IMG/VR virus record: IMGVR_UViG_3300045999_004987
Coordinates: 1 to 33,792 of that record
DNA length: 33,792 nucleotides
Direction: 5' to 3' (one strand)
From: a virus
Within the stretch, counting starts at the first letter, position 1; every line of letters begins with the position of its first letter. The notes below the pieces were generated by a model, which ran no database searches, was not told the origin of the DNA, and worked only from the letters and a program-made list of their open reading frames with translations. The position numbers were made by a program, and so were the translations under genes. Shown piece after piece: positions 8,393 to 33,087 of the stretch.

Positions 8393-8668
8393 ATGAAAAA
8401 ACCACCAAAGAACACCTACGAATTCAACGTAGACGGCAAGCGTTTCTACGCACGTGTATTTAACATGGGCAACAAGCCCGAGCCGAGCGATTGGCTTAGC
8501 GTGGCGAGGTCTCGTGTGATACTTGAATTAAAAGACCAGTTAACCGTTTGCGAAGAGCAGCTCTCGAAACAAAAAAAGGAATTGCACGATTGGAAGGTAG
8601 CTTGCTTTTGCTTTGCCCTGCTTATGTGTGTGTTTGCTATTGTTACCGCTGATCTTTTAATGCCATGA
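8393..8668 (+). CDS. Small membrane-anchored protein, 91 aa
   Basis: Residues 1-40 are polar, 45-65 form a coiled coil (LKDQLTVCEEQLSKQKKEL), and 68-88 form one membrane helix (VACFCFALLMCVFAIVTA). The protein therefore likely sits in the membrane with its N-terminal part on the cytoplasmic side. It is the first gene of its unit and overlaps the next gene by ATGA. A superinfection-control or spanin-like role can be imagined, but nothing in the sequence proves either. Confidence 0.75.
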   Translation: MKKPPKNTYEFNVDGKRFYARVFNMGNKPEPSDWLSVARSRVILELKDQLTVCEEQLSKQKKELHDWKVACFCFALLMCVFAIVTADLLMP

Positions 8669-12715: not shown

Positions 12716-13756
12716 TTAATACATTTCTTTGTTCGGGTCTTGATCTTTTGCAGGCCAAAGATATCCACTACCTTGTGGCGTGTGGCCGTACTGATAAAAC
12801 AAGTGGTAACTCCTATACTCCTGTTGCTTGTGGTTAGCGGGTAGAAACTCCGCTTGGAGCATGATGTACACAGGCTTTCCGTTGTTTGGCGGGTAGGTAA
12901 ACGTGTGAGTGCTTGCGTCGAATCTACCAGTCGGCCCCGCTTGAATAGTCAACGTTTGTCCTTTCGGGTCTGTTCGCGGGTACTGCGTTATACTCGTTGC
13001 CCATGCGTCGATGGCTGCGTGACCTCCCGTTACTTTCGGCGTATCTCCATAAGTCCACCATCGCCATACAAAGTTTTGATCTGTCTTGCCCCAAGGCATT
13101 ATTAAGAATTCAATGTTTACTTCGTTCCAAGGCTTGCCATTGATTAGTGTGCGATTGTACGCAACTCCATTTTCCACTACGATATGAGGAAGGAATGATG
13201 TTAAGGTAGTCGCGGGGTTAAACTTGGATGCGTATTGGATCATAGGGTTATGACTATATCGCAACTCAAAACGTCCGTCGGGTAGTAAGGTAACGAAAAT
13301 GTCATGTGGTGGTATGTCTTGCCTTACCCCTTGCGGATCGGTGAACCTTATTCCTACCTTATGCCATTGCCAAGTGTTCCCTGTTCGGCCTTTGTATTGT
13401 AATTGCCCAGGCGCAGAGTTTACCGTTTCGATCAATTCGTTAAGTAAAGGTCTACCATGTGTAGCCGTGAACCTTCGCACCTCGGGAATATTCCTTCGTC
13501 TTTCGGTGAAGGTAGTGTCTCTTGATGTTTCGATCCAGCCTTGCGCGGTTAGCGTTCGGCGCACACGCACACGAGGAACGCGCTCGATCTTAACATAAGC
13601 GGGAACGATTGATTGATTTAGGCAGTAGTCCATTGACGCCTCGATGAGGTCTTGCGGTACGCCTGTGAGTTCTTCGTTAATCGTCGGCCATGCGGGCTGC
13701 GCGAATGATGCGACGACGAAGAACAACGCCGCGAGAATTGAAAATAATTTTTTCAT
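12716..13756 (-). CDS. Secreted protein with signal peptide, 346 aa
   Basis: Residues 1-20 are a clear signal peptide (MKKLFSILAALFFVVASFAQ) with the AxAQ-type cleavage site common in Bacteroidota. The mature part is Trp-, Pro- and Arg-rich and beta-looking, with IPPHDIFVTLLPDGRFELRY and a C-terminal WPAKDQDPNKEMY, but no T9SS sorting domain. Such a protein would be exported to the periplasm or beyond from an infected cell. It is transcribed after the 13770 gene, 13 bp away. I do not recognise a family; a lysis, superinfection-exclusion or host-interaction role is possible. Confidence 0.8.
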   Translation of the reverse strand: MKKLFSILAALFFVVASFAQPAWPTINEELTGVPQDLIEASMDYCLNQSIVPAYVKIERVPRVRVRRTLTAQGWIETSRDTTFTERRRNIPEVRRFTATHGRPLLNELIETVNSAPGQLQYKGRTGNTWQWHKVGIRFTDPQGVRQDIPPHDIFVTLLPDGRFELRYSHNPMIQYASKFNPATTLTSFLPHIVVENGVAYNRTLINGKPWNEVNIEFLIMPWGKTDQNFVWRWWTYGDTPKVTGGHAAIDAWATSITQYPRTDPKGQTLTIQAGPTGRFDASTHTFTYPPNNGKPVYIMLQAEFLPANHKQQEYRSYHLFYQYGHTPQGSGYLWPAKDQDPNKEMY

Positions 13757-14299: not shown

Positions 14300-14479
14300 A
14301 TGAATCACAGAGATAACCTTGAACTATTGTTCCAATACTCCAAGATGGGGGTGAAGTCAAAACACGATCACGCCATACGCGGATGGAGGCGCACGATGCT
14401 TAAGGTATCGTCGGTTGTGTGGCGGCTTGTGCTTATGGTAATCGGTGCGTATCTTTCTATTTTACTTTATGGCAACTAA
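14300..14479 (+). CDS. Small membrane protein, 59 aa
   Basis: The product has a charged N-terminal half (HRDNLELLFQYSKMGVKSKH) and one hydrophobic helix at about residues 38-56 (VVWRLVLMVIGAYLSILL). It overlaps the tape measure gene by 11 bp, so the two are probably coupled. Function unknown; a small protein in front of the tape measure might have a role in tail assembly or membrane interaction. Confidence 0.6.
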   Translation: MNHRDNLELLFQYSKMGVKSKHDHAIRGWRRTMLKVSSVVWRLVLMVIGAYLSILLYGN

Positions 14480-16388
14480 GTATGTAATTCAGTTAGACGT
14501 AAACGCACAGGGAGCGATAACCAATGCCGACCAAGTGGCCGAAAAATTAAAGGCCGCTGATAAAGCTGCGGGTGCTGCTGCGGGTGGTATGCTTGCTTTG
14601 CGTAAAGAACTCAAAGCAGTTGAGAGCGAGTTATCAGGTCTTGATCCAAACTCGGCAGCATTCGCTGAACTTTCGCAAAAGGCTGGTCTTATCAAAGATC
14701 AGATGAAGGACATCAAAGAGGCGGTGGGTAACCAAGCAGGGCCAGCGGTGGAAGTTTTCGGCAACAACCTAGGCAAATTAAAAGGCGACCTCGGGAACCT
14801 CGACTTTGAGGGCGCGACATCGGCCATTCGTGGTATGGGTAACGCGGTGAAAGGCTTTTCATTCAAGGACTTGATCGGTGGTATCAAGAATTTCGGCAGC
14901 GCACTTGCGAGTGTGGGCAAGGCATTACTTACCAACCCTATCTTTTTAATCGCCGCCGCTGTTGCCGCTGCTGCACTTGCCATTAACGCAGCGTTTGAAA
15001 GCATACAGGCTGAGCAACAAAAGACGATCGACCTTGCGTACGAGAATGCGAATGCGGAGAAAGAGAAGTTGGCCGCATTAAGTGAGGGTGAAAATACATT
15101 AAGGCTCCAAGGCAAGAGCGAAAAAGAAATACTAAAGCTGAAGATCGACCAAGCCAACGCGGCTGTTGAAGCGCAGATAACGGCTATCGAAACGCAGAAG
15201 GCAGTTTTAAAAGATCAGATCGAAACGGCTAAGCGAAACAAAGAGATTGCGAGTGGTATCATTCAATTCATCACCCTACCGATCCAAGTTATTCTAGCCA
15301 CGGTTGACAAGATCGCGGGCTTCCTTGGTAAAGAACTCAACCTACGCGACAAGCTAAACGACTTCCTTTCATCAAAAGTTTTCGATCCCGATCAGATAGC
15401 AAAGGACGGCGAAGCAAGTGTGAAAGAGAACGAGAAGACACTTGCGCAACTTAAGAACCAACGCGATGGGTTTATACTATCACAACGCGACGCTGAAAAG
15501 AAGGCGAGAGATCAGCAAATAGCGGCCAAAAAAGAACAAGAGGACGTTATTTTAACTTTAGAGAAAGACAGTTACAAGGCAAGGTTAATTGAAATTGATC
15601 GGTTTTATTCTGACTTAAGACAAAAAGCCAACGGCAACAAGGATTTGCTTGCTCAAATTTCTAAACAACAAGCGGATGAAGAGGCGGTATTAAAGGATCA
15701 GCAACTCATAAAAGAACAAAACACACAAGAGCAAATTGCGCAGATTAAATCAATCGGCATTCAATCGCAAGGCATTGTGTTATCGCAAGGGTTGCAAATG
15801 CAACAAGCTACTATTGCCGAATCTAGTGCTAACATTAAGCAATTAACTGACGAAGAAAAAGCGTATCAGTTAGAAAAAGAAGTGCAGCTGGCAAATTTAC
15901 GAGCAGACACGGTGAACAATGGCCTGTCAACAATTAGTAACCTCACCACTTTATTCGCAGGCAAAAGTGAACGCTCACAAAAAAGAGCGTTTGAAATTCA
16001 GAAGCGGGTACAGATTGCGATGGCCTTGGCCGATACATACAAGGGTGCAACTGCTGCTTATGCTTCGCAGATCATACCCGGCGATCCAACATCTGTTGTG
16101 CGTGGTGGTCTTGCTGCTGCTGCTGCTGTTGCCGCTGGTCTTGTTAACGTTGCTCAAATAAGAAAGCAACAATTCACGGGCGGTAGTGGAAGCGGTGGAG
16201 GTGGTGGCGGTAGTGCCGCTGCATCATTGGGCGGTGGTGGATCGGCCCCAAACTTCACGGTAACAAACGATAGAGAAGTAGGTGAACGACCAGATCAGCC
16301 AGCTATCAAGACTTATGTAATCGCCAGCGACGTAACGTCGAACCAAGAGGCGACTGAAAAGATTGAATCACGAACAAGAATAGGATAA
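14469..16388 (+). CDS. Tail tape measure protein
   Basis: The 639-aa product starts MATKYVIQLDVNAQGAI, is mostly long helices with Lys/Glu/Gln/Ala heptads, has a hydrophobic segment at about 157-173 (PIFLIAAAVAAAALAIN), and a Gly-rich stretch (GGSGSGGGGGGSAAA) near residue 580. These are typical for tape measure proteins, which set tail length and help DNA exit through the membrane. At about 1.5 angstrom per residue the tail would be near 95 nm. It is on the opposite strand from the other tail genes, which is unusual. It overlaps the protease gene by one base (TAATG). Confidence 0.9.
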   Translation: MATKYVIQLDVNAQGAITNADQVAEKLKAADKAAGAAAGGMLALRKELKAVESELSGLDPNSAAFAELSQKAGLIKDQMKDIKEAVGNQAGPAVEVFGNNLGKLKGDLGNLDFEGATSAIRGMGNAVKGFSFKDLIGGIKNFGSALASVGKALLTNPIFLIAAAVAAAALAINAAFESIQAEQQKTIDLAYENANAEKEKLAALSEGENTLRLQGKSEKEILKLKIDQANAAVEAQITAIETQKAVLKDQIETAKRNKEIASGIIQFITLPIQVILATVDKIAGFLGKELNLRDKLNDFLSSKVFDPDQIAKDGEASVKENEKTLAQLKNQRDGFILSQRDAEKKARDQQIAAKKEQEDVILTLEKDSYKARLIEIDRFYSDLRQKANGNKDLLAQISKQQADEEAVLKDQQLIKEQNTQEQIAQIKSIGIQSQGIVLSQGLQMQQATIAESSANIKQLTDEEKAYQLEKEVQLANLRADTVNNGLSTISNLTTLFAGKSERSQKRAFEIQKRVQIAMALADTYKGATAAYASQIIPGDPTSVVRGGLAAAAAVAAGLVNVAQIRKQQFTGGSGSGGGGGGSAAASLGGGGSAPNFTVTNDREVGERPDQPAIKTYVIASDVTSNQEATEKIESRTRIG

Positions 16389-16975
16389 TGAACAAGAAAA
16401 AGAAAGTAATCAAGTACCATGTGCAAGACGACCACATGGGTATTCAAGCGGTAAGTTTAGTAGATGAACCCGCAATCATGGTAGACTTCGTTTATTTGAG
16501 CAGCCAAAAGAAGGTAAAGCTTGCAGAGGTGAACAAAGAACGCCGCATGGTGTATGGTCCTATCCTTATTCCCGATATGCACATATTGCGGATTGACAAA
16601 GAAACAGGCGAAGAGTACTACATTACCTTTACAAGAGAATGCGTTATGCAGGCCACACACGCGATCCTTAGAAAGAACTTGCAGCATAGTCACACGGTGC
16701 AGCATTCGTTCGCTGTTGCGGGCTTAAGCATCGTTGAATTGTGGGTGAAGGAAGGCGAGAGCGATAAGAGCGTTCACCTTGGTTTTGATCTGCCTATTGG
16801 TACCGCGATGGCGGGTGTGTACATTGAGAACGAAGATGTGTTGGAAGCGGTGAAGGCGGGGGATTTGAAAGGCTTTTCTATTGAAGGTCTATTCACCGAA
16901 ACGCAAGAGCAGTTATCGCTGTCAATTACCGAAAGTCAAATTTTAACAGAACTGGAGTTGCTTCTTTCAAAATAA
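16388..16975 (+). CDS. XkdF-type prohead serine protease
   Basis: The 195-aa protein matches the XkdF family (putative phage serine protease): VSLVDEPAIMVDFVYLS near the start, RMVYGPILIPDMHILRID, the YYITFTRE block, a SHTVQHSFAVAGLSIVE region with candidate catalytic His, and GDLKGFSIEGLF near the end. Such enzymes cleave scaffold and capsid proteins in the prohead. In Bacteroidota phages the family usually sits near capsid and portal and often has an extra C-terminal domain; here that domain is missing and the gene lies after the tape measure, about 8 kb from the capsid gene. Coupled to the previous gene by a TAATG overlap. Confidence 0.88.
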   Translation: MNKKKKVIKYHVQDDHMGIQAVSLVDEPAIMVDFVYLSSQKKVKLAEVNKERRMVYGPILIPDMHILRIDKETGEEYYITFTRECVMQATHAILRKNLQHSHTVQHSFAVAGLSIVELWVKEGESDKSVHLGFDLPIGTAMAGVYIENEDVLEAVKAGDLKGFSIEGLFTETQEQLSLSITESQILTELELLLSK

Positions 16976-17836: not shown

Positions 17837-17863
17837 AAAGCCCCTTAATTGGGGCTTTTTTTA
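17837..17863. terminator. Bidirectional terminator
   Basis: AAAGCCCC/GGGGCTTT encloses a 6-base loop; seven T follow on the plus strand and a T-rich stretch on the minus strand. It serves both the rightward 17618 gene and the long leftward tail operon. Confidence 0.88.
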
Positions 17864-20830
17864 TTTTACTTGGACGTACGTTAAACTTGCCGCGATCCGA
17901 CAGCCGTTGTGGGTACTTCCGTCGTTATGCTTCACGCTCACCCGATGCTCGTTCGTGTTGGTCGTTGGATCAACTTCGATGCTTATATTGCCGATCGTGC
18001 CGTTCCGCTCAACTAGATTGAACTCACCTTTAAACGCGGAGCCAGCTACCTTGGTAAGCGTTCCGAAGTACAAACCGTAACCGTATTTACTGATGCTACC
18101 CGACACGTATTGGCTCACCATCACTTGCAGGGTTACAGCCCACGCGCTTTCATTGGGAATGTTTATGTGTTTGCCCACAATCCCGTTAATGTATAGCGGA
18201 ATTTCACTTACCCCAACGAAGTTACCTTGGCCACTCATTACGAAGGTGCCTGCCTGTTGGGTAGCTATACCTTTCGTGCGGTCGTTGTTGTACCAACCGC
18301 CGCCCAAGTGAATGCCCGGTATATTGGTTCTAACACCTTGACCGAACACCGCCACCGTTCCCGCGTCGTTTTGCACTTCGATGTTATCACCCACGGCCAT
18401 AACGTTTCTATTACCCGTCCCGATCTTGATGTTTTGCCCTGCGGCAACTGTATTGCCTGCGTCTGCGGGAATGGTTATCCTGTTGCCTATGCGAAACGCA
18501 TTTGTATTAGTGTCTGCTCCAGCGTTTTGGTTGTTGCCGATGGAACGCACACCAAGCGCAAACAGATCGTTGGGTACTTGGCCTCCACTTCCCGTGCTTG
18601 GAGGAAAGGCTGAACAATAAGTCTTGTCGGTTTCCTCGATCCAAAAGTAGCCGTACCTTGTGCAGCACAGTTCACTTGCCCCTTCTTCACCCTCTGCATT
18701 CTCGAAGATCACTTCACCGTCAAGGTTAACAGATACGGGTTGGAACTCACAATCGAGCGCAGGGTTGAGAATCTTTATCAATCGAAGCGGCGTACTCACC
18801 TCTTGCCCCACCGCATGGTTATTAATATCGAGTATTCTCCAGTAGGCATCACGAATGAATATCTTGTCGTTGAACTTGAAGTTCACAATATCGGAGGTAT
18901 CAAGGTTGAATGACGCTTCCATAACCCTTGCATCGTTTGAATAAATCTCGTTGAGGTAATCTCTCCAGTAAAGGTTGAATAGATTATTAAACGGGTTGCC
19001 GTTGATGCTGTGCAGGGGTGCCTCGGGTGCGAAGTTTAGATCGAACCCGCCGACCGTTGGTAGAAAATTATTGTAGTGGTTGCCCACGTACACAGATCGA
19101 ACCTCGGGGCCTACCCCGTCGATGAATAAGTAAACCTCAACCGTTCCAGCTGTGTAAAGAAAACGAAGGCTTGGCGCAACGTAGTTACCATTCTCGGCGA
19201 TGAACTTAGGTATTGGAACAGGCGTACCGTTAATCACGCTGCATGGTGTTGACTGCGCGGTTAATTCAATCTTTAACTCACCCTCTGCAAAGTCGCTCGG
19301 GTCTTCGAGAGAGGTAGCGGTGTACCCGTCAACCTTGTAGTCGCCGTACACTCTCTGCTTCTTATCCACGTAGTACTTTGAGTTAGCATCGCCACCCGCT
19401 TTGTATGTGAATAGTAACGTCTTCTTTTGCTCTTCGTCTGTACCTCTCACCACAACATCAACGCTTTCATCTAACTTACCCGTCCAGTCTTTCACGTCGC
19501 CACCTTGTAGGTACTCGGGAAAGGGGGTAAAATATAACTTGTTGGGTATGTTTCGATCGGGAACCACGGCAAGGTTGTGCATACGCATAACGTCGCGCAG
19601 AAAAGCCATCTGCGTAACGTCGGGAGCATTGAGCGGCAAGTTGACAGTACCGCCACTAAGCGCATCACTTGTGGCTGCTATTCTCCATCCCGTGCCTTCT
19701 GTTGGCAAGTTGGTTGCGGTGCCTTCGAGATTGTAAAAGTTGTCGGCGTTGGATATGTAGGTGCTATCAAGTTTAACGCTTTGCCCCGTGTCAAGGAATA
19801 CCGAAAAAGTAGAAAAAATATGGTTGGTAATGTTTTCAAGATCAAAGAACTGTTGCGCCAACACCTCGTTAGTATCGGTATCTATTATGCGCAGGGTTAA
19901 ATGACCGAACGCTGTTTCACCGGGAGGTGCTGTGCTTAGCGATGGATCAACACCCGCCCATACCTCGAATTGAAAGAACGCTGTGTAAGGTGCGGTATAA
20001 ACACCCGCCAATAAGTTAGTGCCGTTATCGTACACCTCACTCATCGTTGCACTATCCACAGTGCCCGGCGTTTGATCGGTTAAGAATCCCGCCTCAAAGA
20101 ATGCCTCTTGTCCGGGGCTTTCGTTAATGATATTTGATGTAACGCTAAACGGAACGTAATACAACGCAAGTCGATCCGCCAAGGTTTCACCCTGCCACAC
20201 GAAGCCAGCTTCAGTAATGATCTTATCAAACAACCACAACGCTTGAACGTGCGGCGTAAGGTCTGCTGCGTAAAGTGGGTTATTCGGGTTCCATATCGGA
20301 CGTGTAGCTGCCTCGCCAAGCTGCGACCACTTTTGCCCACGATCGCACAAGAAGTATCGCACGGTTTCTGCATCAAGATCGGTAACACTTGCCGCGTTCA
20401 TTACCTCGTTCAAGTCGGGTAACGCTTCGATGTCTGCCAGTTTCTTTTCACCAACTGCTGTGGCTAGGTCTGTGGTTTCGGTATAGAAAACTACATCGTA
20501 ATCGAATCCGCTCTTGTCCTTTGTTTTTACCACCCGCTTAACTTGGATATGACCAACTGCGATGGGTACGGTGTCGACAGTCAATACGGCGTCGACCTTC
20601 TTTCCAAACTTGAACCATGACTGCGCATTCACGTCGTCGAGCGCACCGAAAAACGCAACGTTTGTCGGGCTATCGGGTATAGAGAATTGACGGGAGAAAC
20701 CTCCCGCCGCTTTGAGTTCGGATATATCGGTAAACTTCCACGTTTGGGAAATCGTTTCGTTCTCATACAAGTCGAGAATTGTACCCTGCCCCGAATCGGA
20801 GTTTATAGCTGTGAGTATTACTTGGCTCAT
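17861..20830 (-). CDS. Large tail tip / receptor-binding fiber protein, 989 aa
   Basis: The N-terminal half (MSQVILTAINSDSGQG, FSRQFSIPDSPTNVAFFGALDD) resembles the large tail tip proteins of Bacteroidota prophages, which form a hub below the tape measure. Around residues 770-850 the sequence changes to short Gly-containing repeats (IGNRITIPADAGNTVAAG, IKIGTGNRNVMAVGDNIEV) like the beta-roll of trimeric adhesins. The last 150 residues form a beta-rich head and are the likely receptor-binding part. Last gene of the leftward operon, joined to the previous one by ATGA. Confidence 0.8.
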   Translation of the reverse strand: MSQVILTAINSDSGQGTILDLYENETISQTWKFTDISELKAAGGFSRQFSIPDSPTNVAFFGALDDVNAQSWFKFGKKVDAVLTVDTVPIAVGHIQVKRVVKTKDKSGFDYDVVFYTETTDLATAVGEKKLADIEALPDLNEVMNAASVTDLDAETVRYFLCDRGQKWSQLGEAATRPIWNPNNPLYAADLTPHVQALWLFDKIITEAGFVWQGETLADRLALYYVPFSVTSNIINESPGQEAFFEAGFLTDQTPGTVDSATMSEVYDNGTNLLAGVYTAPYTAFFQFEVWAGVDPSLSTAPPGETAFGHLTLRIIDTDTNEVLAQQFFDLENITNHIFSTFSVFLDTGQSVKLDSTYISNADNFYNLEGTATNLPTEGTGWRIAATSDALSGGTVNLPLNAPDVTQMAFLRDVMRMHNLAVVPDRNIPNKLYFTPFPEYLQGGDVKDWTGKLDESVDVVVRGTDEEQKKTLLFTYKAGGDANSKYYVDKKQRVYGDYKVDGYTATSLEDPSDFAEGELKIELTAQSTPCSVINGTPVPIPKFIAENGNYVAPSLRFLYTAGTVEVYLFIDGVGPEVRSVYVGNHYNNFLPTVGGFDLNFAPEAPLHSINGNPFNNLFNLYWRDYLNEIYSNDARVMEASFNLDTSDIVNFKFNDKIFIRDAYWRILDINNHAVGQEVSTPLRLIKILNPALDCEFQPVSVNLDGEVIFENAEGEEGASELCCTRYGYFWIEETDKTYCSAFPPSTGSGGQVPNDLFALGVRSIGNNQNAGADTNTNAFRIGNRITIPADAGNTVAAGQNIKIGTGNRNVMAVGDNIEVQNDAGTVAVFGQGVRTNIPGIHLGGGWYNNDRTKGIATQQAGTFVMSGQGNFVGVSEIPLYINGIVGKHINIPNESAWAVTLQVMVSQYVSGSISKYGYGLYFGTLTKVAGSAFKGEFNLVERNGTIGNISIEVDPTTNTNEHRVSVKHNDGSTHNGCRIAASLTYVQVK

Positions 20831-22098
20831 ACGTTAATAGTGTGTGCGTATTGAAGTTTCATGGCTTGGTTGTACTGCTTCTTATCCCTTGCGCGTCGCA
20901 CTAGATAACTGTTGTCCTCGATAAGTACGGGCGTTATCGTCGCGTTATCGTTCACGATAAATACTTGTTTTGAATAGAGTAGCGATTTTAGCAGGGCAAA
21001 CTCTCCTTCCTGTAACCACCCGCTTTCGATGTTGAGGTACTGCTTCACGATCGGTGTGCGTTCGGTTAGTCCACGATCGAATGAGTTAAACCCGAAAGTG
21101 TCGGCCGCATAAGTGCCTACCACCTTGCGGTATCTTCTGCGTTCCACCTCTATATTTTCCTCGTTTTTTCGGGTAAAGTTGAAGAAGTCCCACCCTCCAT
21201 GCTCGTTCACCCATGCAAGGCGCACATTGGGGTACTTGCAATCTGCGCCGCCGTATATCGCCGCGTTGTACAACACATACGATGCAGATACAATAGCGTT
21301 CGACGCGTTAAGAACTTGGAACCCGATATACCTCCAGTTAGGGTAAGCAGATGGTTTAGGTATTCCGCTAATAATTGAGGCGTTTAGGTTAGCAGGGTAG
21401 CACCCGAAGTGTCCGAAATCGGGCAGGTCTGCCGTGTAAGTAACAGGCGATCCGCTATCGGGCACAAGGGTAACGCGTCCTTTGAGTGCTGCGATGCCTG
21501 AAGCTTGAATCGTGCAGAAACTTATCACACCGAAATCACTTTCGCGTGTTGGAATGTAGACCACATTGCCGCTGCTTGATATTTTCGGAAACAAGTCGGG
21601 CAGATGCGTGTCGGCGTATCGGCTTGAAAGAAGGTACTTTGTTTGCCCTGTCAAGCCGTAACGAGTTGCAGGATTTGGACGATAACCGTCGCTGATTTGG
21701 TAGCGTGCGGGCCATACTTTTATGTCCGTTATTTCTTCGCTACTAGGAGCGTCTGTCAGCACACCGTCAACTATCCACGCTTCGTACATATTACACTTAA
21801 ACTGCACCAAACCACTTGCACCAACCTCTTCGTACGAACCGTCAGCAAACACAATGGGCGAACCCGACAAATCAACCGCGTTCATGCACCACTTGGTAAC
21901 GATTGCATTGGCATCAAACACAAGTTTGTCGGACGGGTTGGGAGGTAGGTAGAATGAAATCTCTTCATTCGTTGATGTGTTTATTAACATCACCCTGTAG
22001 CGAAATCCCGTATTGCCCACGTTGGTAGACGATGCCACAAATATTAAAGGCTGACCGACGGGCGTAACGCCGTAGGGCTGTTGTTCGATTGTTATCAT
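20827..22098 (-). CDS. Tail tip (baseplate) protein, 423 aa
   Basis: The protein is beta-rich throughout and contains RLAWVNEHGGWDFFNFTRKNEE, a block I associate with tail tip proteins of Bacteroidota phages (WxNxxGxxDxFxF), and a C-terminal region that ends RDKKQYNQAMKLQYAHTINV. It is encoded between a gp10-like protein and the large tip protein, with ATGA overlaps on both sides, so the three are likely made together. It probably forms part of the distal tail. Confidence 0.78.
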   Translation of the reverse strand: MITIEQQPYGVTPVGQPLIFVASSTNVGNTGFRYRVMLINTSTNEEISFYLPPNPSDKLVFDANAIVTKWCMNAVDLSGSPIVFADGSYEEVGASGLVQFKCNMYEAWIVDGVLTDAPSSEEITDIKVWPARYQISDGYRPNPATRYGLTGQTKYLLSSRYADTHLPDLFPKISSSGNVVYIPTRESDFGVISFCTIQASGIAALKGRVTLVPDSGSPVTYTADLPDFGHFGCYPANLNASIISGIPKPSAYPNWRYIGFQVLNASNAIVSASYVLYNAAIYGGADCKYPNVRLAWVNEHGGWDFFNFTRKNEENIEVERRRYRKVVGTYAADTFGFNSFDRGLTERTPIVKQYLNIESGWLQEGEFALLKSLLYSKQVFIVNDNATITPVLIEDNSYLVRRARDKKQYNQAMKLQYAHTINV

Positions 22099-22607
22099 TG
22101 TTTTAGTTTACTTTCAATGTACGCTTGCAATGCGTTTACTATTTTTTCCTCATGTTCTGGGAGCGCGTCGTTGTACGCGTTCTCGTAATACTTCACGGCG
22201 GGTATTCCGTTCTTGCCTATGCCTCTCGCTATTGAAAAAGCTAACCCTTTTTTTCTGCTTTCGGTCTGCTTTACGATCTTGCCCTTTTCGTCGCGCACTT
22301 TAATCTTCTTATCGTTGATCCATTTGAGTATCGGCTCAACAGGCGGTTGCTTGCTGTTAGGCTTGCGTCCCTCCTCTACATAGTCGGCGTAATTTGCCGC
22401 CGCACCTTTGGCAATGAACTTAATCGTGTAGCTATCCTTGTTGCGGCGAAGCGAAAAGGTTAACGAATTTTTGAGGGTTCCCGTTGCAACTGCTCTGCGC
22501 TTCTTACCCTTAACCATGCGCGTTGCACCAAGGTTACGCTGAGCACGTTCAACCACATCGTTTCCGAAGTTCACAAGTGCATCAACTATGGCCGTGTTAT
22601 CGTTCAT
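22095..22607 (-). CDS. HK97 gp10-like head-tail or tail-completion protein
   Basis: The 170-aa basic protein has the layout of the gp10 family: an N-terminal helix (VERAQRNLGATRMVKGKKRR), ATGTLKNSLTF, and YADYVEEGRKPNSKQPPVEPILKWI, then KGLAFSIARGIGKNGIPAVKYYENAY. The YxxxVExGxxP motif is characteristic. Members act at the joint of head and tail. Coupled by ATGA to genes on both sides. Confidence 0.85.
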   Translation of the reverse strand: MNDNTAIVDALVNFGNDVVERAQRNLGATRMVKGKKRRAVATGTLKNSLTFSLRRNKDSYTIKFIAKGAAANYADYVEEGRKPNSKQPPVEPILKWINDKKIKVRDEKGKIVKQTESRKKGLAFSIARGIGKNGIPAVKYYENAYNDALPEHEEKIVNALQAYIESKLKQ

Positions 22608-23590
22608 TGTATCACCACTTTGGTTCGTTGCTCGTCTTGCTCCACCACATAAACCCCTTGTTTTAATTCGCAGTTCTCAATGGATCCCGAATACATAACC
22701 GCTCCCTCCATTGAATAAACTTTAATAGGGGAGTTACTGCCAGTGGATAGACTAAACTTATCGGTGCTTGGATTTGGATATGCGTAGAACGATTCATCTT
22801 CACTTGTAGCCATGGCACTTGGGTTGATCTTCACGAAGGTGCCGACTATCCAAATGTTGGAGTTAGGTTGCAGGGTAGTAACGTTTGAAGTAAAATCGAA
22901 TGTTTGCGGCCTTCGTGCGAAGTCGGTTAGAAAGAACTTCATGTTAGCGTCGGGCGTTGCTACCCTTTGGCCGTTATGGTAGAACGCTATTCTTATCTGC
23001 GTGTTGCTGTTTGATACAAGAACTGCATGGTAGTACAACTGCGATAAGCTAGTTACGTTTGTTTCTAAAGATATACCCATTACTCCGCCCGATTGAATGC
23101 CTTGTTTCCAGTTGCTGTTATCGGTTAAGTTACGGGCTAATTGAAGGCATTGCATTGAACTATTCCACGTTGCGGTGTAACCACTTGCACCCACCCACGA
23201 TGTGCCATTAAAGGCGATCTGTTGGCCGCTCGCTATATTGTTCGATCCACGAATTACTATCGAGGTTGAACTCACCGAAGCCCCGAATGTATGGCCTTCC
23301 ATCGCGTAGGTTTCATCTGCTCCACATACTAGACCACTAGGCGTCCATTGTGAAGGGTTCATGCCCATGCCGTCGAAATCCATATCCAAGGTGAGTTGAT
23401 TGCTCGTTGCTGTTATCGTCCCCGAAAATCCAAGTGCATCATGGTCGGGCGTTACGAAGCCCCAACCCGACGAAGCGCGACGAATTACGCCGCTGACTAT
23501 TGCTACCTCTCGATTCCAAGTAAAGATTGAATCTTGCGCGGTTAAACAAAACGTGCAGAATAAAAGGATTGAAAGTAAAATTGTTTTCAT
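22604..23590 (-). CDS. Secreted protein with type IX secretion sorting domain
   Basis: Residues 1-18 form a signal peptide (MKTILLSILLFCTFCLTA, cleavage before QDS). The mature part is beta-rich with 230 residues of unknown fold (FTWNREVAIVSGVIRR, then TFDFTSNVTTLQPNSNIWIVG). The last 60 residues (from about 269) are a type A T9SS C-terminal domain: YPNPSTDKFSL, IKVYSMEGAVMYSG, ELKQGVYVVEQ, TKVVIQ. Such domains send a protein across the outer membrane by the host T9SS and then to the surface. The gene overlaps the gp10-like gene by ATGA and follows the fiber gene by two bases, so it is co-expressed with tail genes. Nothing suggests truncation. Confidence 0.88.
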   Translation of the reverse strand: MKTILLSILLFCTFCLTAQDSIFTWNREVAIVSGVIRRASSGWGFVTPDHDALGFSGTITATSNQLTLDMDFDGMGMNPSQWTPSGLVCGADETYAMEGHTFGASVSSTSIVIRGSNNIASGQQIAFNGTSWVGASGYTATWNSSMQCLQLARNLTDNSNWKQGIQSGGVMGISLETNVTSLSQLYYHAVLVSNSNTQIRIAFYHNGQRVATPDANMKFFLTDFARRPQTFDFTSNVTTLQPNSNIWIVGTFVKINPSAMATSEDESFYAYPNPSTDKFSLSTGSNSPIKVYSMEGAVMYSGSIENCELKQGVYVVEQDEQRTKVVIQ

Positions 23591-23592
23591 AA

Positions 23593-24978
23593 TTACTGAT
23601 ATTCGATTGATATGTTATTGACTTGAATTGCATTTGTTGTTGCGCCAACTAACCGCCAACTCCATAAATCGGTTGCGCTGTACGATATGGCTCCAGTCGC
23701 AGTAAAAACACCAGTCGTTGATCCGCTCGGTATGGTTACTACTAACCCCGTATCTACTCCGTTACGGCGTAAAGTGAAGGTCGATGCGCCAACTGTTGCT
23801 GTAACTATCACTAGGTAGGCGGTTGCGCCAACCGTTGTTAACGCACGAGGCACCACTTGTTGTGGCGTACCCTCGGAAGTTGCGATAGCGTTTGATCCTT
23901 GCACCACTAAAAAACGGGTAAGCCCTGCGGCGAGTGTTCCGCCCGGCGAAGAGTTAGCAAAAAAGGTAGGCGTGAACCATTGTGTGTTAAAGTCGGTTGC
24001 GTTTATTTTTCGCAACACTTGCCCTGTCGTTCCACCCGTTGGCACGCCTTGGCCGTTTGCCCCAGTTGCGCCTGTCGGCCCTGTGTCACCGGTATCACCT
24101 TTATCTCCTTTGTCGCCCTTATCACCTTGGATTCCCTGTATTCCCTGTATGCCTTGGATGCCTTGTATTCCCTGCGTACCTTGTTCGCCTTGCGGCCCTT
24201 TGATATTACCGACAACTGTCCAAACGTTTGCGGCCTTATTGTACACATCACCGTTCGATGTGCGTAGGTAGTAGTCGCCATTATTGCCAAGTGAATTGCT
24301 CGGCACGCCCGAACCATCAAACCAAACGCTCCCACCGCCGCCACTTGTTATCGCGTGCCAACCTTTCACCCCACTTGCATTAGTGCCGTAGTACTTTGAA
24401 TTGCCAGGTGCCTCTTCATCGTTATCAAGGGTTATGGTAACACCTTCTTTGTTCAATGATTCAGCAAAAACTAAAGAGGTATTCGGATCGGTGCTATCGG
24501 GCGAGGTAACGCCAATAGTAAAGTCGGCGGGTATATCACACGCGCTCCAGTTCCAATCGAAGGATAAAGTAATATCGAGAGTAACGCCCGTTAATGTGTT
24601 CGTTCCTTCCTCGAATAGTGGGGTAATAGTCGGATCGCCTTCAAAGGCAACATCGCTGCCAAATATCGTGCGCCCGTTTTGAATCTCGGCGATCAAGTCC
24701 TCGGCGATTCTTTGCATCGCGCTTGCACTTTCCTTTTGGTATTCCGTTTTTTCGGTGCGGTCCCTCGGCAAGTCGGCAAACAAGATCGCGAAAGTCCACG
24801 TCTTCATCTTGGAAGGGTACCCGCTATTTGTCCAAAATACGTGCATCAATGGGTACACGGGTTCTTTTGGTAAGTCGGCTTGTGTTGGCTGTCCATGGCT
24901 GAATGCCTTGATCTGCAAGTGCGCGTCGGCAAATGCACGGAACCTTTCAATTATTACTTTGTATGATACGTTGGTCAT
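23593..24978 (-). CDS. Tail-completion domain fused to a collagen-like fiber
   Basis: Residues 1-155 resemble tail terminator/completion proteins of Bacteroidota phages (IIERFRAFADAHLQIKAFSHGQ, then MQRIAEDLIAEIQNG, DITLSFDWNWSACDIP). Residues 260-309 are Gly-X-Y collagen-like repeats, and 310-461 a beta-rich head ending in IQVNNISIEYQ. The fusion places a trimeric fiber on a protein of the upper tail or neck. The next gene upstream ends with an overlapping ATGA. A head or neck whisker is the most likely structure. Confidence 0.78.
   Translation of the reverse strand: MTNVSYKVIIERFRAFADAHLQIKAFSHGQPTQADLPKEPVYPLMHVFWTNSGYPSKMKTWTFAILFADLPRDRTEKTEYQKESASAMQRIAEDLIAEIQNGRTIFGSDVAFEGDPTITPLFEEGTNTLTGVTLDITLSFDWNWSACDIPADFTIGVTSPDSTDPNTSLVFAESLNKEGVTITLDNDEEAPGNSKYYGTNASGVKGWHAITSGGGGSVWFDGSGVPSNSLGNNGDYYLRTSNGDVYNKAANVWTVVGNIKGPQGEQGTQGIQGIQGIQGIQGIQGDKGDKGDKGDTGDTGPTGATGANGQGVPTGGTTGQVLRKINATDFNTQWFTPTFFANSSPGGTLAAGLTRFLVVQGSNAIATSEGTPQQVVPRALTTVGATAYLVIVTATVGASTFTLRRNGVDTGLVVTIPSGSTTGVFTATGAISYSATDLWSWRLVGATTNAIQVNNISIEYQ
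24052..24198 (-). repeat. Collagen-like Gly-X-Y repeat coding region
   Basis: Sixteen consecutive Gly-X-Y triplets (five GIQ, three GDK, two GDT and others) are encoded here. Synonymous changes keep the amino acid repeat but the DNA stays repetitive, so length changes by slippage are likely. Confidence 0.85.
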
Positions 24979-25259
24979 CGTTTCTTTTTTTGCTGTTCAA
25001 AATTCTTTCGCTGCATGTACACCATGTGTGTTAGTAGGGTGTAGTGGTTTATCTTAGTTAACTCCTCGATTCTTACCACATCGTAATTCGCTAACTGCTC
25101 CAAGGTATGCAGCCAACCGAACGCCGCTAGTCCTCCTCCATCAGTTGCGCCAGCATCTTCTCCAGTTCCTTCTTCTCCTTGGTCAACCGCACTAACAAAG
25201 AGTGCTGCGAAATGGTCGGTAGTTCGTTTGCAATGGCCGAAAAAAAAAGCAGCGCACCG
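24975..25259 (-). CDS. Tail assembly chaperone extension in the -1 frame
   Basis: The -1 frame is open from after TGA at 25262-25260 through the stop of the 25127 gene to TGA at 24975-24977, where it overlaps the next start as ATGA. The part past the first frame's stop reads FGWLHTLEQLANYDVVRIEE and LTKINHYTLLTHMVYMQ, protein-like and typical for the T part of a G/GT chaperone pair. It has no start codon of its own in a good place. The only canonical slip heptamer I see is T TTT TTT at 25247-25241, in the right frame; a slip nearer the stop by another signal is possible. Confidence 0.7.
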   Translation of the reverse strand, partial: RCAAFFFGHCKRTTDHFAALFVSAVDQGEEGTGEDAGATDGGGLAAFGWLHTLEQLANYDVVRIEELTKINHYTLLTHMVYMQRKNFEQQKKKR

Positions 25260-25750
25260 TCAACTCTATCCATAGTCATTGCCTCGATCAAGTGCAGATG
25301 CCTTACCCTCTCGTTGTCGTATGGCTCCACCTCGTACAACAACTTACCACCACCACGCATTGAATACGTAACGGGGCGAAAGAGTAAAGCCATAAGTTTA
25401 GGCAAGTCGGTATAATCGGGATTGCGTTTGTCCTTCCAAATGTTTTGCGTGTAAGACAAACCGTCGATGTATTCACCGGCGGTCATTTGGGTGAAGTCGG
25501 GAATTAAACCGATACGCCCTTGAAACCACTTTGGCCGAAATACATTATCATGCCTCCGCATTGTTTTACTAAGCACAATTTCAAACGTTTCAATGATCTT
25601 AGAAAGCGTTTCAATCGGCCACTTGTACACCACCTTTTTCTTCTCACCCGTTATCGCGCATACCTTGTCCACATCGCTCTTCGCTGTTTTGTAGGCGACG
25701 AACTGCGCAAGGGTAACGCTCGAATAAAGGGCGGGTATATTAACCTTCAT
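25127..25750 (-). CDS. Tail assembly chaperone (G-like product)
   Basis: The 207-aa product starts MKVNIPALYSSVTLAQFVAY, as do tail assembly chaperones of Bacteroidota phages, with IIPDFTQ-like middle sequence and a charged coiled coil at the end (LTKEKKELEKMLAQLMEED). It sits just before the tail genes, where this chaperone is expected, binding the tape measure during tail assembly. The 148 bp behind its stop have no independent gene but are open in the -1 frame, pointing to a frameshifted longer form. Confidence 0.78.
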   Translation of the reverse strand: MKVNIPALYSSVTLAQFVAYKTAKSDVDKVCAITGEKKKVVYKWPIETLSKIIETFEIVLSKTMRRHDNVFRPKWFQGRIGLIPDFTQMTAGEYIDGLSYTQNIWKDKRNPDYTDLPKLMALLFRPVTYSMRGGGKLLYEVEPYDNERVRHLHLIEAMTMDRVDGALLFFSAIANELPTISQHSLLVRLTKEKKELEKMLAQLMEED

Positions 25751-25773
25751 ACTTTAGAATAGAATTGTGCTTA

Positions 25774-26184
25774 TTAAATGCCGTTAGGAATAACGATGTT
25801 AACTAGTCGATCACCGTCCTTTCCTGTTATCTCTTGGCGCTCGACGTAGCCACGGTGTTTGCCGCGTGTCTTTAAAAAGAAGATAGCCGCTGTCTTATCG
25901 GGCTTACCCCGTAATTCAACGATCTCACCGCTTAGTGGGTGTATCACTTCCTCGGTTGCCCCGTCGATAAGGTCGAGCAGCTTACTTTCCACGAAGTCAA
26001 TCGCCCCTTCGTTGATGGCTTCGATATCTTCTTTAAACTCTGGGTCATCTTTGAGCCAAGCATAGTAAGTAGAGCGAACCACGTCGGCAGCTTCAAGAGA
26101 ATGCGACACGATTCCACGGTACTTCTTCATCGCTTTTAACATCGCTTTTTTAGCAAGTACAGTTCTATTTTGGTCTTTACTCAT
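25774..26184 (-). CDS. terS: Terminase small subunit
   Basis: The 136-aa protein has an N-terminal helix-turn-helix (AMLKAMKKYRGIVSHSLEAA, then VVRSTYYAWLKDDPEFKED), an oligomerisation helix (AIDFVESKLLDLIDGA), and a C-terminal tail with TAAIFFLKTRGKHRGYVER, which is typical for small terminase subunits that recognise the packaging site. It is 7 kb away from terL and on the other strand, which is unusual. It begins 6 bp after the Cys-rich gene. Confidence 0.85.
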   Translation of the reverse strand: MSKDQNRTVLAKKAMLKAMKKYRGIVSHSLEAADVVRSTYYAWLKDDPEFKEDIEAINEGAIDFVESKLLDLIDGATEEVIHPLSGEIVELRGKPDKTAAIFFLKTRGKHRGYVERQEITGKDGDRLVNIVIPNGI

Positions 26185-26190
26185 ATCTTC

Positions 26191-26622
26191 TTAGTTTTCA
26201 GTATATTGCCTAACCACCTTCCTCATCTCACTTATTGCATCTTTCACGCAAGTACCACAAACCGTTACTTCAACTACCTTGCCCTCGATCGTTGATACCC
26301 AAGAGTATAACTCTTCGAGTTCCTTGCGGTTAAAGGTGTTCTTCGTTTCGATCGACTTCACGTACTTCTCGAATTTCTTGAACTCTTTTTCGGTTATCGC
26401 TCCTTTCCATTTACCAAGGGGGCATGATGCCCACGATAGTTTGGCCTTTACTTTCATCACGCAGCCACATAAGCGTTTCTTAGAACGGTACCAAGTTACT
26501 TTTTGGCCGAGCGGATTCAGCCAGCGGGGCGTACCGCAAGTGCCGTGCTCCTTATTGTAGAACTCGCAGCCCTTACACATCGTCATGCGTTCTTGCTCGA
26601 TCTTTCCGTGTACTTTAAACAT
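26191..26622 (-). CDS. Cys-rich probable zinc-binding protein, 143 aa
   Basis: Cysteine motifs CKGCEFY, CGTP, CGCVM and a late CGTC point to one or two zinc sites in the N-terminal half; the second half is helical (EKEFKKFEKYVKSIE, FNRKELEELYSWV). Proteins with this MCKGCEFYNKE start are known to me from Bacteroidota phages but have no assigned role. It sits between a sigma-like gene and terS, so a regulatory or packaging accessory role is possible. The start overlaps the sigma-like gene by 8 bases. Confidence 0.75.
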   Translation of the reverse strand: MFKVHGKIEQERMTMCKGCEFYNKEHGTCGTPRWLNPLGQKVTWYRSKKRLCGCVMKVKAKLSWASCPLGKWKGAITEKEFKKFEKYVKSIETKNTFNRKELEELYSWVSTIEGKVVEVTVCGTCVKDAISEMRKVVRQYTEN

Positions 26623-30810: not shown

Positions 30811-31505
30811 ACATCAACGACACAATCATTCGAGAGGCCACCACGGGCAAGAAGTTAAAGGACTGCTCGATCCAAGACCTGCACGTACCGCTGACCAAAT
30901 GCGCCGCACTTGCTGGCGCGAAAGAAGCCATACCCGATCCGCAGTTCAAAATGTTTCAAACGGTTTTAGCCGTCGGTTATCCGCAACTAACTCTAAACGA
31001 ACTGTCTATCGCGGTAACGATGAACATAACGCGGCAACTTGAAAAACACGTTCAATGCTTTGGTGAATTCACCCACGATTACCTTTGCTCCATTTTAAGC
31101 CAATACAAGGACTTTCGCGGCAAAGTAATGGTAAGATACCACCAAGAGGTAGAAGATCAAAGGACGGCCCTCGCCTTGCCGCCAAAACAGGTAACGGAGG
31201 CCGATTGGCTTTCGATCATTGAAGCGGATAAAAAAAGTTTGGCTGCTGGCAAAGACACATGGACGTTCGGAGCGGTTCGTGTTTTCCGCTGGCTGCAAGA
31301 AACAGGACGCGTGAATGACGACGACTACACCGACGAGCAAATTAAGGAGATGCGCCGCCGTGCGAGGTATGAAGTTATGACGCGGGAAAACATTTCACCG
31401 CGCAAGGTCAGCACGATGAGTGAAGCTGAACTCCGTATCTTTGAGCAGAAGTGTGTGTGTGAACTGCAAACGATGGCTTACTTTCAATACTTAAAAAAAC
31501 TATGA
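30807..31505 (+). CDS. Replication-associated protein, 232 aa
   Basis: The product starts MNINDTIIREATTGKKLKD, is helical, and has FGEFTHDYLCSILSQYKDF near residue 90 and a positively charged C-terminal region (MRRRARYEVMTREN). Its place just after the initiator suggests a helicase loader or similar factor; I see no Walker motif. An open frame extends upstream but overlaps the initiator gene by 200 bases. The ATGA joint at 30807 decides the start. Confidence 0.72.
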   Translation: MNINDTIIREATTGKKLKDCSIQDLHVPLTKCAALAGAKEAIPDPQFKMFQTVLAVGYPQLTLNELSIAVTMNITRQLEKHVQCFGEFTHDYLCSILSQYKDFRGKVMVRYHQEVEDQRTALALPPKQVTEADWLSIIEADKKSLAAGKDTWTFGAVRVFRWLQETGRVNDDDYTDEQIKEMRRRARYEVMTRENISPRKVSTMSEAELRIFEQKCVCELQTMAYFQYLKKL

Positions 31506-31675
31506 ACCAAAAAGAATACACAAGATGCATCGAGTTGAAAGAGGAACTTCTCGAAGTCGGTGCGCTAATCGCGATATGCGACAACAAGATTCTGAAACAA
31601 ACCTTGATCGGCGAAGGCCGTTCGATCGCCGCTGAATTGTTCGAGTTAACAGGAGATCCAAAATACAAACTATGA
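31502..31675 (+). CDS. Small hypothetical protein, 57 aa
   Basis: The sequence MNQKEYTRCIELKEELLEVG, followed by a hydrophobic LIAICDNKIL segment and ending ELFELTGDPKYKL, is helical. Start and stop form ATGA overlaps with both neighbours (31502 and 31672), as in the rest of this operon. Function unknown. Confidence 0.72.
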   Translation: MNQKEYTRCIELKEELLEVGALIAICDNKILKQTLIGEGRSIAAELFELTGDPKYKL

Positions 31676-31809
31676 GAAAGAAGTATTACAAAAAAGATCC
31701 ATTAGAAGAACAAATGAAGTTTAAAAATCGTTTGGACTTTTGGTTAACCGTAGGCAGCTTACTGATGTTATTTTATTTTTTCAAATTTCTTTTACTGGGT
31801 AAACTATGA
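31672..31809 (+). CDS. Small membrane protein, 45 aa
   Basis: A basic start (MRKKYYKKDP) is followed by one hydrophobic helix (LTVGSLLMLFYFFKFLLLG). ATGA joints link it to both neighbours, which makes a real gene likely despite the small size. It might anchor or regulate the following surface-modification genes, but no direct evidence supports that. Confidence 0.65.
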   Translation: MRKKYYKKDPLEEQMKFKNRLDFWLTVGSLLMLFYFFKFLLLGKL

Positions 31810-32423
31810 AAAAACTAAAACTGTGGTTGTTTAAAAAAGGCTGGATAAACATTCACCCCGACGCGATAGTTGAGCCAAGTGCCTTTGTGCATCGTACTTC
31901 AATCATTTACGGAGGTGCATGGATTTGCGATAACGTGCAGATAGGCCCTTACTGCATCATTGGTAGTGTCGCTGAATATCCGAATGATCGGATGCGGCAC
32001 TCAGATACGGGCGTTGTTGTTATTGGAAAAGGCGCAGTACTTCACGGCCACAATACGGTAGATGGAGCAAAAGAGATTTCGACGGGTATTGACTGTAACT
32101 GCACGCTGATGAAAGGCGCACACGTTGGGCATGATGCCTACTTAGGTGAAAGGGTAACGCTTTCGTGTGGTGCAAAGATCGGTGGGTTTACCCACGTTGA
32201 ACATGATAGTACGATTGGTTTAAACGCAACGGTACATCAAAAATCTTTTATACCTAGGGGTTCAATGATCGGGGCGGGATCGTTCTACAAAGGACACCAC
32301 GACGAGGTCTACATGGTATGGGTGGGCAGCCCTGCACGTCCGATAAAACAAAACACACACTTACTTGATAAACTAAAATTCAATGAAAATTTCGATCACG
32401 ATTCCGATTTACCTCAAGGGTAA
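31806..32423 (+). CDS. LpxA-like left-handed beta-helix acyltransferase
   Basis: The 205-aa product has hexapeptide repeats of the left-handed beta-helix (IHPDAIVEPSAFVHRTSII, NVQIGPYCIIGS) and a His-rich active region (LMKGAHVGHDAYLGERVTL, then GGFTHVEHDSTIGLNATVHQ), like LpxA and related sugar acyltransferases. Such enzymes act on UDP-sugars for lipid A or O-antigen. It is shorter than LpxA (about 260). With the next gene it may alter the host surface. Overlaps the next gene by 41 bases. Confidence 0.8.
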   Translation: MKKLKLWLFKKGWINIHPDAIVEPSAFVHRTSIIYGGAWICDNVQIGPYCIIGSVAEYPNDRMRHSDTGVVVIGKGAVLHGHNTVDGAKEISTGIDCNCTLMKGAHVGHDAYLGERVTLSCGAKIGGFTHVEHDSTIGLNATVHQKSFIPRGSMIGAGSFYKGHHDEVYMVWVGSPARPIKQNTHLLDKLKFNENFDHDSDLPQG

Positions 32424-33087
32424 GCCACACCAACCCGCATACGAACGCTGCATAGCACACTACGCGAAGAGCGGTTTTCCTGTTGTCGTTTGCGGAAGCG
32501 AGGGCAAATTATCAAAACGATTCGTGGAGCCGTTTTTATCAGATAACGTTTCATACGTTGAGGTACCACAAACGCACGGTACAACGGCGAGTGCTGGAGA
32601 TGAAAGTTTGCGCAAAAAGTTCAACGATTCTTTGGCGGCATTACCCCCGAGCGATTGGTATTGCTTGGTTGGGGCCGACGACTTTGCGCCCCTTGGTATG
32701 TTCGAGCAGTTGGCTGTACTCGATCCAAACGAAGTTATCATGTCGGGCGTAAGTAATGGTAAGCCGTTACTTATTCACCAAATGATTTCGGGCGAAACGA
32801 TCCGAGTTGATTTGAACTACAAGGTTGATCTGCTTCCCGGCATAAACATCTTTAGCAAAGGTGCGATGCTTGCTTGTGGCGGTCGCCCTTATCAACTAAA
32901 GGGCTGCGAAACGGGAGCAGAAAGAATGTTTAAGGATATTGGCAAAGTCGTTCGCCTCGATGGGTATATCGTGATGTTAAAATACAAAGATGAACTAAAC
33001 TCGTTTGACAAGATAAAGCGGGTACACTACAACGAGCCAGCAACAAAAGCAGAAATGATCTACGTGAATGAGTGCCTCAACCCATAG
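32383..33087 (+). CDS. Glycosyltransferase-like protein (GT-A fold)
   Basis: The product begins KISITIPIYLKGKPHQPAYE, as GT-A enzymes do, then has KFNDSLAALPPSDWYCLVGA followed by DDF (DxD-like site, residues about 100-105), and a later NIFSKGAMLACGG with EXXAERMF. The order KFN..GADD is shared with the gene at 8665. With the LpxA-like gene upstream a role in surface glycan modification is likely. The end overlaps terL by 20 bases. Confidence 0.72.
   Translation: MKISITIPIYLKGKPHQPAYERCIAHYAKSGFPVVVCGSEGKLSKRFVEPFLSDNVSYVEVPQTHGTTASAGDESLRKKFNDSLAALPPSDWYCLVGADDFAPLGMFEQLAVLDPNEVIMSGVSNGKPLLIHQMISGETIRVDLNYKVDLLPGINIFSKGAMLACGGRPYQLKGCETGAERMFKDIGKVVRLDGYIVMLKYKDELNSFDKIKRVHYNEPATKAEMIYVNECLNP

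What the first reader, a model, noticed from the sequence alone, without database searches (positions are those of the whole stretch)
22604..23590. T9SS-tagged secreted protein encoded within the phage tail operon
The protein has both a signal peptide and a type A T9SS sorting domain (YPNPSTDKFSL ... LKQGVYVVEQ ... KVVIQ), and overlaps or abuts tail genes on both sides. It would be made together with the virion and sent by the host's own T9SS to the cell surface. A surface-displayed phage product could block superinfection, mask the receptor, or help release; alternatively it may be a virion part that has kept the tag. T9SS domain pattern is established; the role is inference.
Basis: partly seen in the sequence, partly recalled or inferred. 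Interest (0 to 1): 0.88.

Follow-up and report, generated by a model that had tools for sequence, protein, structure and literature searches.

The report
Phage fibre tip addressed for secretion
A bacterial virus carries, between two of its tail genes, a gene for what looks like the tip of a tail fibre, but with an export signal at the front and the host's type IX secretion tag at the back, so that the infected cell probably sends it to its own surface, where it might block attachment by other viruses.

Summary
The 328-aa gene (22604-23590, minus strand) has a Sec signal peptide and a C-terminal T9SS type A sorting domain: TIGR04183 25.5 bits against a cut-off of 23, though Pfam PF18962 scores 25.1 against 27. 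It lies 2 nt after a collagen-like fibre gene and overlaps the neck gene by 4 nt. A sister phage from another metagenome has it at the same place. It is under purifying selection (dN/dS 0.07; tag 0.12), so it is not an assembly artefact.

New here: the body (residues ~31-252) is the C-terminal domain that ends actinophage tail fibres (tblastn 1e-8). The virion-attachment part is replaced by the signal peptide, and the secretion tag follows the fibre's natural end. The body was not found in 299 Flavobacteriaceae or 395 Bacteroidota genomes. Eight related phages with the same tail gene order have only a ~60-aa ORF, or nothing, in this slot.

Best reading: a fibre-tip domain rerouted through Sec and the host T9SS to the cell surface. 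Its role (receptor occupancy or superinfection exclusion) is inference. Phage-encoded T9SS cargo was reported before (PMC7468147, PMC6949934), so this is a new variant of a known kind. A virion-component role is unlikely.

The parts
22604..23590 (-). Gene for the T9SS-tagged fibre-tip protein (328 aa)
   Evidence: conserved in L002 with dN/dS 0.073
23537..23590 (-). Signal peptide, residues 1-18 (MKTILLSILLFCTFCLTA, then QDS)
   Evidence: sequence inspection and hydropathy scan; hydrophobic in the sister phage despite 3 substitutions in 18 residues
22835..23500 (-). Tail-fibre tip domain, residues ~31-252
   Evidence: tblastn E 1e-8 to Arthrobacter phage fibre C-termini; PHROG 24580 tail fiber 5e-5; 61 bits against at most 35 in 1000 shuffles; Foldseek BFVD top hits are minor tail/tail fibre proteins
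22784..22834 (-). Linker between fibre-tip domain and sorting domain, residues 253-269
   Evidence: actinophage fibres end within 0-8 residues of this point; dN/dS 0.30
22607..22783 (-). T9SS type A C-terminal sorting domain, residues 270-328
   Evidence: TIGR04183 over cut-off; shuffle control; dN/dS 0.117
23593..24978 (-). Upstream neighbour: tail-terminator-like N-terminus fused to collagen repeats and a fibre tip; a different tip domain
   Evidence: PHROG tail fibre hits; N-terminus conserved in relatives; no similarity of its tip to the T9SS-protein body
22095..22607 (-). Downstream neighbour: neck / tail-completion protein, start overlaps the stop of the gene (ATGA)
   Evidence: phrog_5 E 1.1e-7, HK97-gp10 weak; conserved in relatives
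20827..22098 (-). Tail-module protein (423 aa)
   Evidence: conserved in all eight relatives at the same place
17861..20830 (-). Tail-module protein (989 aa)
   Evidence: conserved in all eight relatives at the same place

Best explanation
The gene encodes a phage tail-fibre tip (receptor-binding-type) domain that has been cut loose from the virion and re-addressed. A signal peptide replaces the shaft and attachment region, and a T9SS type A sorting domain is added after the natural end of the fibre. It is made late with the tail proteins, exported by Sec, carried across the outer membrane by the host T9SS, and has its tag cleaved by the host sortase (PorU type), so that it ends on the cell surface or is released. 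There it most likely binds a surface glycan or protein used by phages and occupies it, blocking superinfection by phages with that fibre type or keeping particles from being wasted on already infected cells. Shown at sequence level: the ORF, the domains, the operon position, conservation and selection. Inferred: late expression, export, display, binding and biological role.
For: T9SS tag over the curated cut-off in both phages, with shuffle control. Body homologous to the C-terminal domain of seven actinophage tail fibres, always at the end of the fibre. Fold hits are tail fibre or minor tail proteins. The N-terminal fibre module is absent and replaced by a signal peptide (alignment). The gene is embedded in a conserved tail operon with a 4-nt overlap. 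Purifying selection acts on body and tag. Host group is Bacteroidota: terminase relatives in Cellulophaga, Flavobacterium and Polaribacter phages and in a Flavobacteriaceae MAG with 34 T9SS cargo genes; portal relatives in Nonlabens phages. The body was not found in host genomes (positive control), so it is phage-derived. Precedent that a free receptor-binding protein blocks infection: purified T5 pb5 added to cells blocks T5, and the T5 exclusion gene llp lies next to pb5 (PMC9586334).
Against: No experiment. The body does not resemble the tip of this phage's own collagen-like fibre or the C-terminus of its 989-aa tail protein, so masking of its own receptor is not directly supported. The binding function of the domain in actinophages is inferred from position. 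The tag is short (59 residues against 72 model positions) and under the Pfam cut-off. The structure model is weak (mean pLDDT 57; body about 39-85 by block). Late expression would leave little time to protect the cell.
Confidence: 0.42

Rival explanations
1. It is secreted through T9SS but acts on something other than phage receptors: a glycan-binding adhesin or host-altering protein (adhesion, gliding, aggregation, spread to new cells), i.e. a T9SS cargo moron whose benefit is ecological.
For: Same sequence evidence for export. Other viral contigs carry T9SS-tagged proteins with unrelated bodies, including a peptidase-like one. Cryophage carries a T9SS-tagged endoglucanase, glycoside hydrolase and PA14 protein (PMC7468147).
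Against: The body is a fibre-tip domain, which points to cell-surface recognition. Co-encoding with tail genes fits a role at the end of infection rather than long-term host benefit, and no lysogeny genes were noticed in the window.
Confidence: 0.28
2. It is a virion component (side fibre or fibre tip) that merely carries a signal peptide and a sorting tag.
For: Lies in the tail operon between fibre and neck genes. Body homologous to virion fibres.
Against: The N-terminal attachment module of the homologues is missing and a signal peptide stands in its place. Exported proteins are not available to cytoplasmic assembly (established phage biology). The tag is under purifying selection. Relatives have no fibre-size gene in this slot between fibre and neck.
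Confidence: 0.12
3. It is a soluble decoy or counter-decoy: released after tag cleavage or at lysis, it binds receptors on debris, vesicles or neighbouring cells, freeing progeny from non-productive adsorption or excluding competitors.
For: T9SS type A cargo can be released as well as attached (established for T9SS). Fibre-tip body.
Against: Nothing in the sequence separates this from surface anchoring. Own-fibre tip differs.
Confidence: 0.13
4. Tag or gene without function: a recent chance fusion or an assembly chimera.
For: Found in only two phages.
Against: Same gene and junctions in an independently assembled sister at dS about 0.5, dN/dS 0.07 over the gene and 0.12 over the tag.
Confidence: 0.05

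Closest known systems
Cryophage T9SS cargo proteins (Nat Commun 2020, PMC7468147)
   Same: Phage genes with T9SS type A sorting domains; the authors proposed host T9SS hijack and superinfection exclusion
   Different: Their cargo bodies are an endoglucanase, a glycoside hydrolase 39 and a PA14 protein, among variable genes; here the body is a tail-fibre tip inside the tail operon
crAss-BACON ORFs with a T9SS domain (PMC6949934)
   Same: Phage protein with T9SS tag near structural genes of phages predicted to infect Bacteroidetes
   Different: Body is BACON repeats, near the head section; no fibre-tip homology shown
Tail fibre / minor tail proteins of Arthrobacter phages Anjali, Mendel, Swim, Shambre1, Ranunculus and Rhodococcus phages ReqiPoco6, E3 (PHROG 24580)
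   Same: C-terminal ~215-residue domain, 23-30% identity over the domain
   Different: Those keep an N-terminal part (shaft/attachment) and end with the domain; no signal peptide, no T9SS tag, hosts are actinobacteria
Superinfection-exclusion lipoproteins Llp (T5) and Cor (PMC9586334)
   Same: Phage-encoded, exported to the envelope; llp lies next to a receptor-binding-protein gene; proposed shared outcome
   Different: Llp is a small periplasmic lipoprotein acting from inside by allostery; this is a non-lipoprotein, fibre-derived and T9SS-addressed to the outside

Membership tests
T9SS type A cargo | C-terminal sorting domain matching TIGR04183/PF18962 | tested here: met
   TIGR04183 25.5 bits over cut-off 23 and 27.5; PF18962 25.1, below its 27 cut-off
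T9SS type A cargo | N-terminal Sec signal peptide | tested here: met
   MKTILLSILLFCTFCLTA^QDS by hydropathy and cleavage pattern; no SignalP run
T9SS type A cargo | Host possesses a T9SS | tested here: inconclusive
   Host not identified; terminase relatives in flavobacterial phages and a Flavobacteriaceae MAG with 34 T9SS cargo genes
T9SS type A cargo | T9SS-dependent secretion and tag cleavage | not testable with these tools
   needs expression in a T9SS+ strain and its T9SS mutant
Phage tail fibre (virion protein) | Homology to fibre receptor-binding/tip domain | tested here: met
Phage tail fibre (virion protein) | Virion-attachment N-terminal module | tested here: not met
   replaced by a signal peptide; alignment
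Phage tail fibre (virion protein) | Present in virions | not testable with these tools
   mass spectrometry needed
Superinfection-exclusion protein | Blocks adsorption or injection of a superinfecting phage | not testable with these tools
   inference only
Llp/Cor superinfection-exclusion lipoproteins | Small lipoprotein with lipobox | tested here: not met
   328 aa, no lipobox
Moron (accessory gene in a structural operon) | Absent from relatives with otherwise the same gene order | tested here: met
   eight relatives lack it, with a ~60-aa ORF, a short gap or nothing at the slot

The most novel reading that the evidence does not exclude
A phage displays a detached tail-fibre tip on its host's surface through the host's type IX secretion system to occupy phage receptors: a superinfection-exclusion (or anti-competitor) mechanism made by re-addressing a virion adhesin with a secretion tag.
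Probability: 0.35. Interest if true: 0.85.

Novelty: new variant of a known kind. Interest (0 to 1): 0.64.

Why it matters
It gives a concrete, testable case of a phage using a host outer-membrane secretion system to place its own adhesin on the cell surface. If confirmed, it would add a fibre-derived class to superinfection exclusion, show one reason why Bacteroidota phages carry T9SS tags, and offer a natural route for displaying phage-derived binding domains on these bacteria.

Tried and rejected
Assembly chimera: rejected, sister phage in another metagenome. Host surface-protein family picked up by the phage: the body is not detectable in 299 Flavobacteriaceae and 395 Bacteroidota genomes (positive control), nor in genome contigs by pattern scan. 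Readthrough or frameshift extension of the upstream fibre: TAA stop, different frame, own ATG and signal peptide. Same tip as the phage's own fibre or 989-aa protein: no similarity. Single-sequence AlphaFold: useless (pLDDT 36). PDB fold search: no significant match. PDB sequence search: none. More close relatives by flanking genes: only the same sister each time.

Full report
OBSERVATION. The window is a complete or nearly complete phage record (33,792 bp; ends overlap by 127 bp with one mismatch). It carries terminase, portal, endolysin and tail genes. The gene at 22604-23590 (minus) encodes 328 aa beginning MKTILLSILLFCTFCLTAQ and ending SFYAYPNPSTDKFSL...LKQGVYVVEQDEQRTKVVIQ. TIGR04183 (T9SS type A sorting domain) matches residues 271-328 with 25.5 bits, over the curated cut-off of 23; Pfam PF18962 gives 25.1 bits, under its cut-off of 27. 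So the tag is real but short: 59 residues against a 72-position model. With a small profile built from CTDs of a Flavobacteriaceae MAG, the real protein scores 23.7 bits and the best of 2000 tail shuffles 7.2. The signal peptide was judged by hydropathy and cleavage pattern only.

OPERON POSITION. The upstream gene (23593-24978) is a fusion of a conserved tail-terminator-like N-terminus, collagen repeats and a fibre tip. Its TAA stop is followed by TT and the ATG of our gene. Our stop overlaps the start of the neck gene as ATGA. Eight related phages whose tail modules could be read have the same order: tail-terminator N-terminus, fibre (fused or separate), neck, 423-aa, 989-aa, tape measure, XkdF. 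In several of them the slot between fibre and neck holds a short ORF of about 60 codons overlapping the neck start; in two the fibre nearly abuts the neck. The T9SS gene stands in that slot in the window and in one sister phage only. TIGR04183 is found in 2 of 45 records of this phage group, but many of those records are fragments that lack the tail module.

CONSERVATION. The sister (IMGVR_UViG_3300009169_000067, L002) has the same gene with 94% protein identity and the same junctions. Between the two, the whole gene has dN/dS 0.073, the body 0.046, the tag 0.117 (only 17 nucleotide differences, 4 amino-acid changes), the signal peptide 0.31 and the linker 0.30; the neck gene has 0.088 and the 423-aa gene 0.123. 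The gene and its tag are therefore kept by selection.

WHAT THE BODY IS. tblastn against 50,697 phage genomes gives 17 records, all Arthrobacter and Rhodococcus phages, best E 1e-8, most annotated 'tail fiber protein' or 'minor tail protein'; PHROG 24580 'tail fiber protein' matches residues 33-251. In all seven fibres read here the homologous domain is the C-terminal end of the fibre: the alignment covers residues ~30-252 of our protein and stops within 0-8 residues of the fibre's end. The real body scores 61 bits to Anjali; the best of 1000 shuffles scores 35. The AlphaFold model of the body is of middling confidence (overall 57; body blocks about 39-85). Foldseek against viral models finds mostly tail fibre and minor tail proteins, including a Klebsiella and an Escherichia phage fibre. 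The actinophage hits there are not independent, since such sequences were in the alignment, and TM-scores are low. No PDB match. The body was not found in 395 Bacteroidota genomes or 299 Flavobacteriaceae genomes, while the same query finds the actinophage fibres. So the body is a phage fibre domain, not a host surface protein.

ARCHITECTURE AND INFERENCE. The protein is a fibre-tip domain in which the N-terminal shaft and virion-attachment part is replaced by a signal peptide and to whose natural C-terminus a T9SS tag has been added. By established T9SS biology such a protein crosses the inner membrane by Sec and the outer membrane by T9SS, loses its tag, and is attached to A-LPS or released. 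It would not be available for cytoplasmic virion assembly. The host is not known, but terminase relatives occur in Cellulophaga, Flavobacterium, Polaribacter and Bacteroides phages, portal relatives in Nonlabens phages, and a terminase relative in a Flavobacteriaceae MAG with 34 T9SS cargo genes.

ROLE. A displayed fibre tip most simply binds what fibre tips bind: a surface receptor or glycan. Occupying it would exclude phages with that fibre type. Precedent: adding purified T5 receptor-binding protein pb5 blocks T5, and T5's exclusion gene llp lies beside pb5, although Llp itself works differently, from the periplasm (PMC9586334). Against a purely self-directed role, the tip of the phage's own collagen-like fibre and the C-terminus of its 989-aa protein show no similarity to the body. 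Adhesion or other host alteration remains a serious rival.

COMPARISON. Phage-encoded T9SS cargo is already published: three variable genes of Cryophage, with host T9SS hijack and superinfection exclusion suggested (PMC7468147), and T9SS domains near crAss-BACON ORFs (PMC6949934). A motif scan of IMG/VR found 11 contigs and all carry a TIGR04183 match over the cut-off, on unrelated bodies. In the INPHARED collection a consensus tag, written from general knowledge of the family, finds only seven records, all metagenomic with no host named. What is new here is the cargo: a tail-fibre tip, inside the tail operon. I found no paper describing that, within an open-access library only.

VERDICT. Secretion of a fibre-tip domain by the host T9SS is likely at sequence level (about 0.8); receptor occupancy as its role is about 0.35-0.45.

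Noticed in passing
window 12716-13756 (-): A second protein with a clear signal peptide (MKKLFSILAALFFVVASFAQ), 346 aa, no T9SS tag, no PHROG or Pfam family and no match in phage genomes; it lies apart from the tail operon, between RusA-like and tape-measure genes.
   Followed up: partly
L098 (relative G013, record 31215-32174, -): A related phage encodes a 319-aa signal-peptide protein next to XkdF without a T9SS tag; only a weak local match to window 12716-13756 (pairwise E 0.001), so secreted accessory proteins may recur in this phage group.
   Followed up: partly
L127-L137 (IMG/VR contigs), e.g. L128, L133, L131: Eleven viral contigs with T9SS-tagged proteins; one nearly identical 446-aa protein is shared by three contigs of 75-128 kb (L127, L133, L136), and L128/L135 carry peptidase-like bodies (HExxH). 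Whether all are phages and not host DNA was not checked.
   Followed up: partly
window 14445-16975 (+) against 17861-26622 (-): The tape measure and XkdF protease genes are on the opposite strand from the rest of the structural genes in this phage and its sister, while the relatives read here keep them on the same strand as the tail module.
   Followed up: no
window 31806-33087 and 8665-9489 (+): A hexapeptide acyltransferase-like protein and a neighbour sit just before the terminase, and a possible glycosyltransferase-like protein at 8665-9489; possible surface-modification genes.
   Followed up: no
window 25774-26184 (-) against L002 5377-5808: The small gene upstream of the tail module is a strongly diverged version in the sister (48% identity) while its flanks are 98-99% identical, suggesting local gene exchange.
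   Followed up: no
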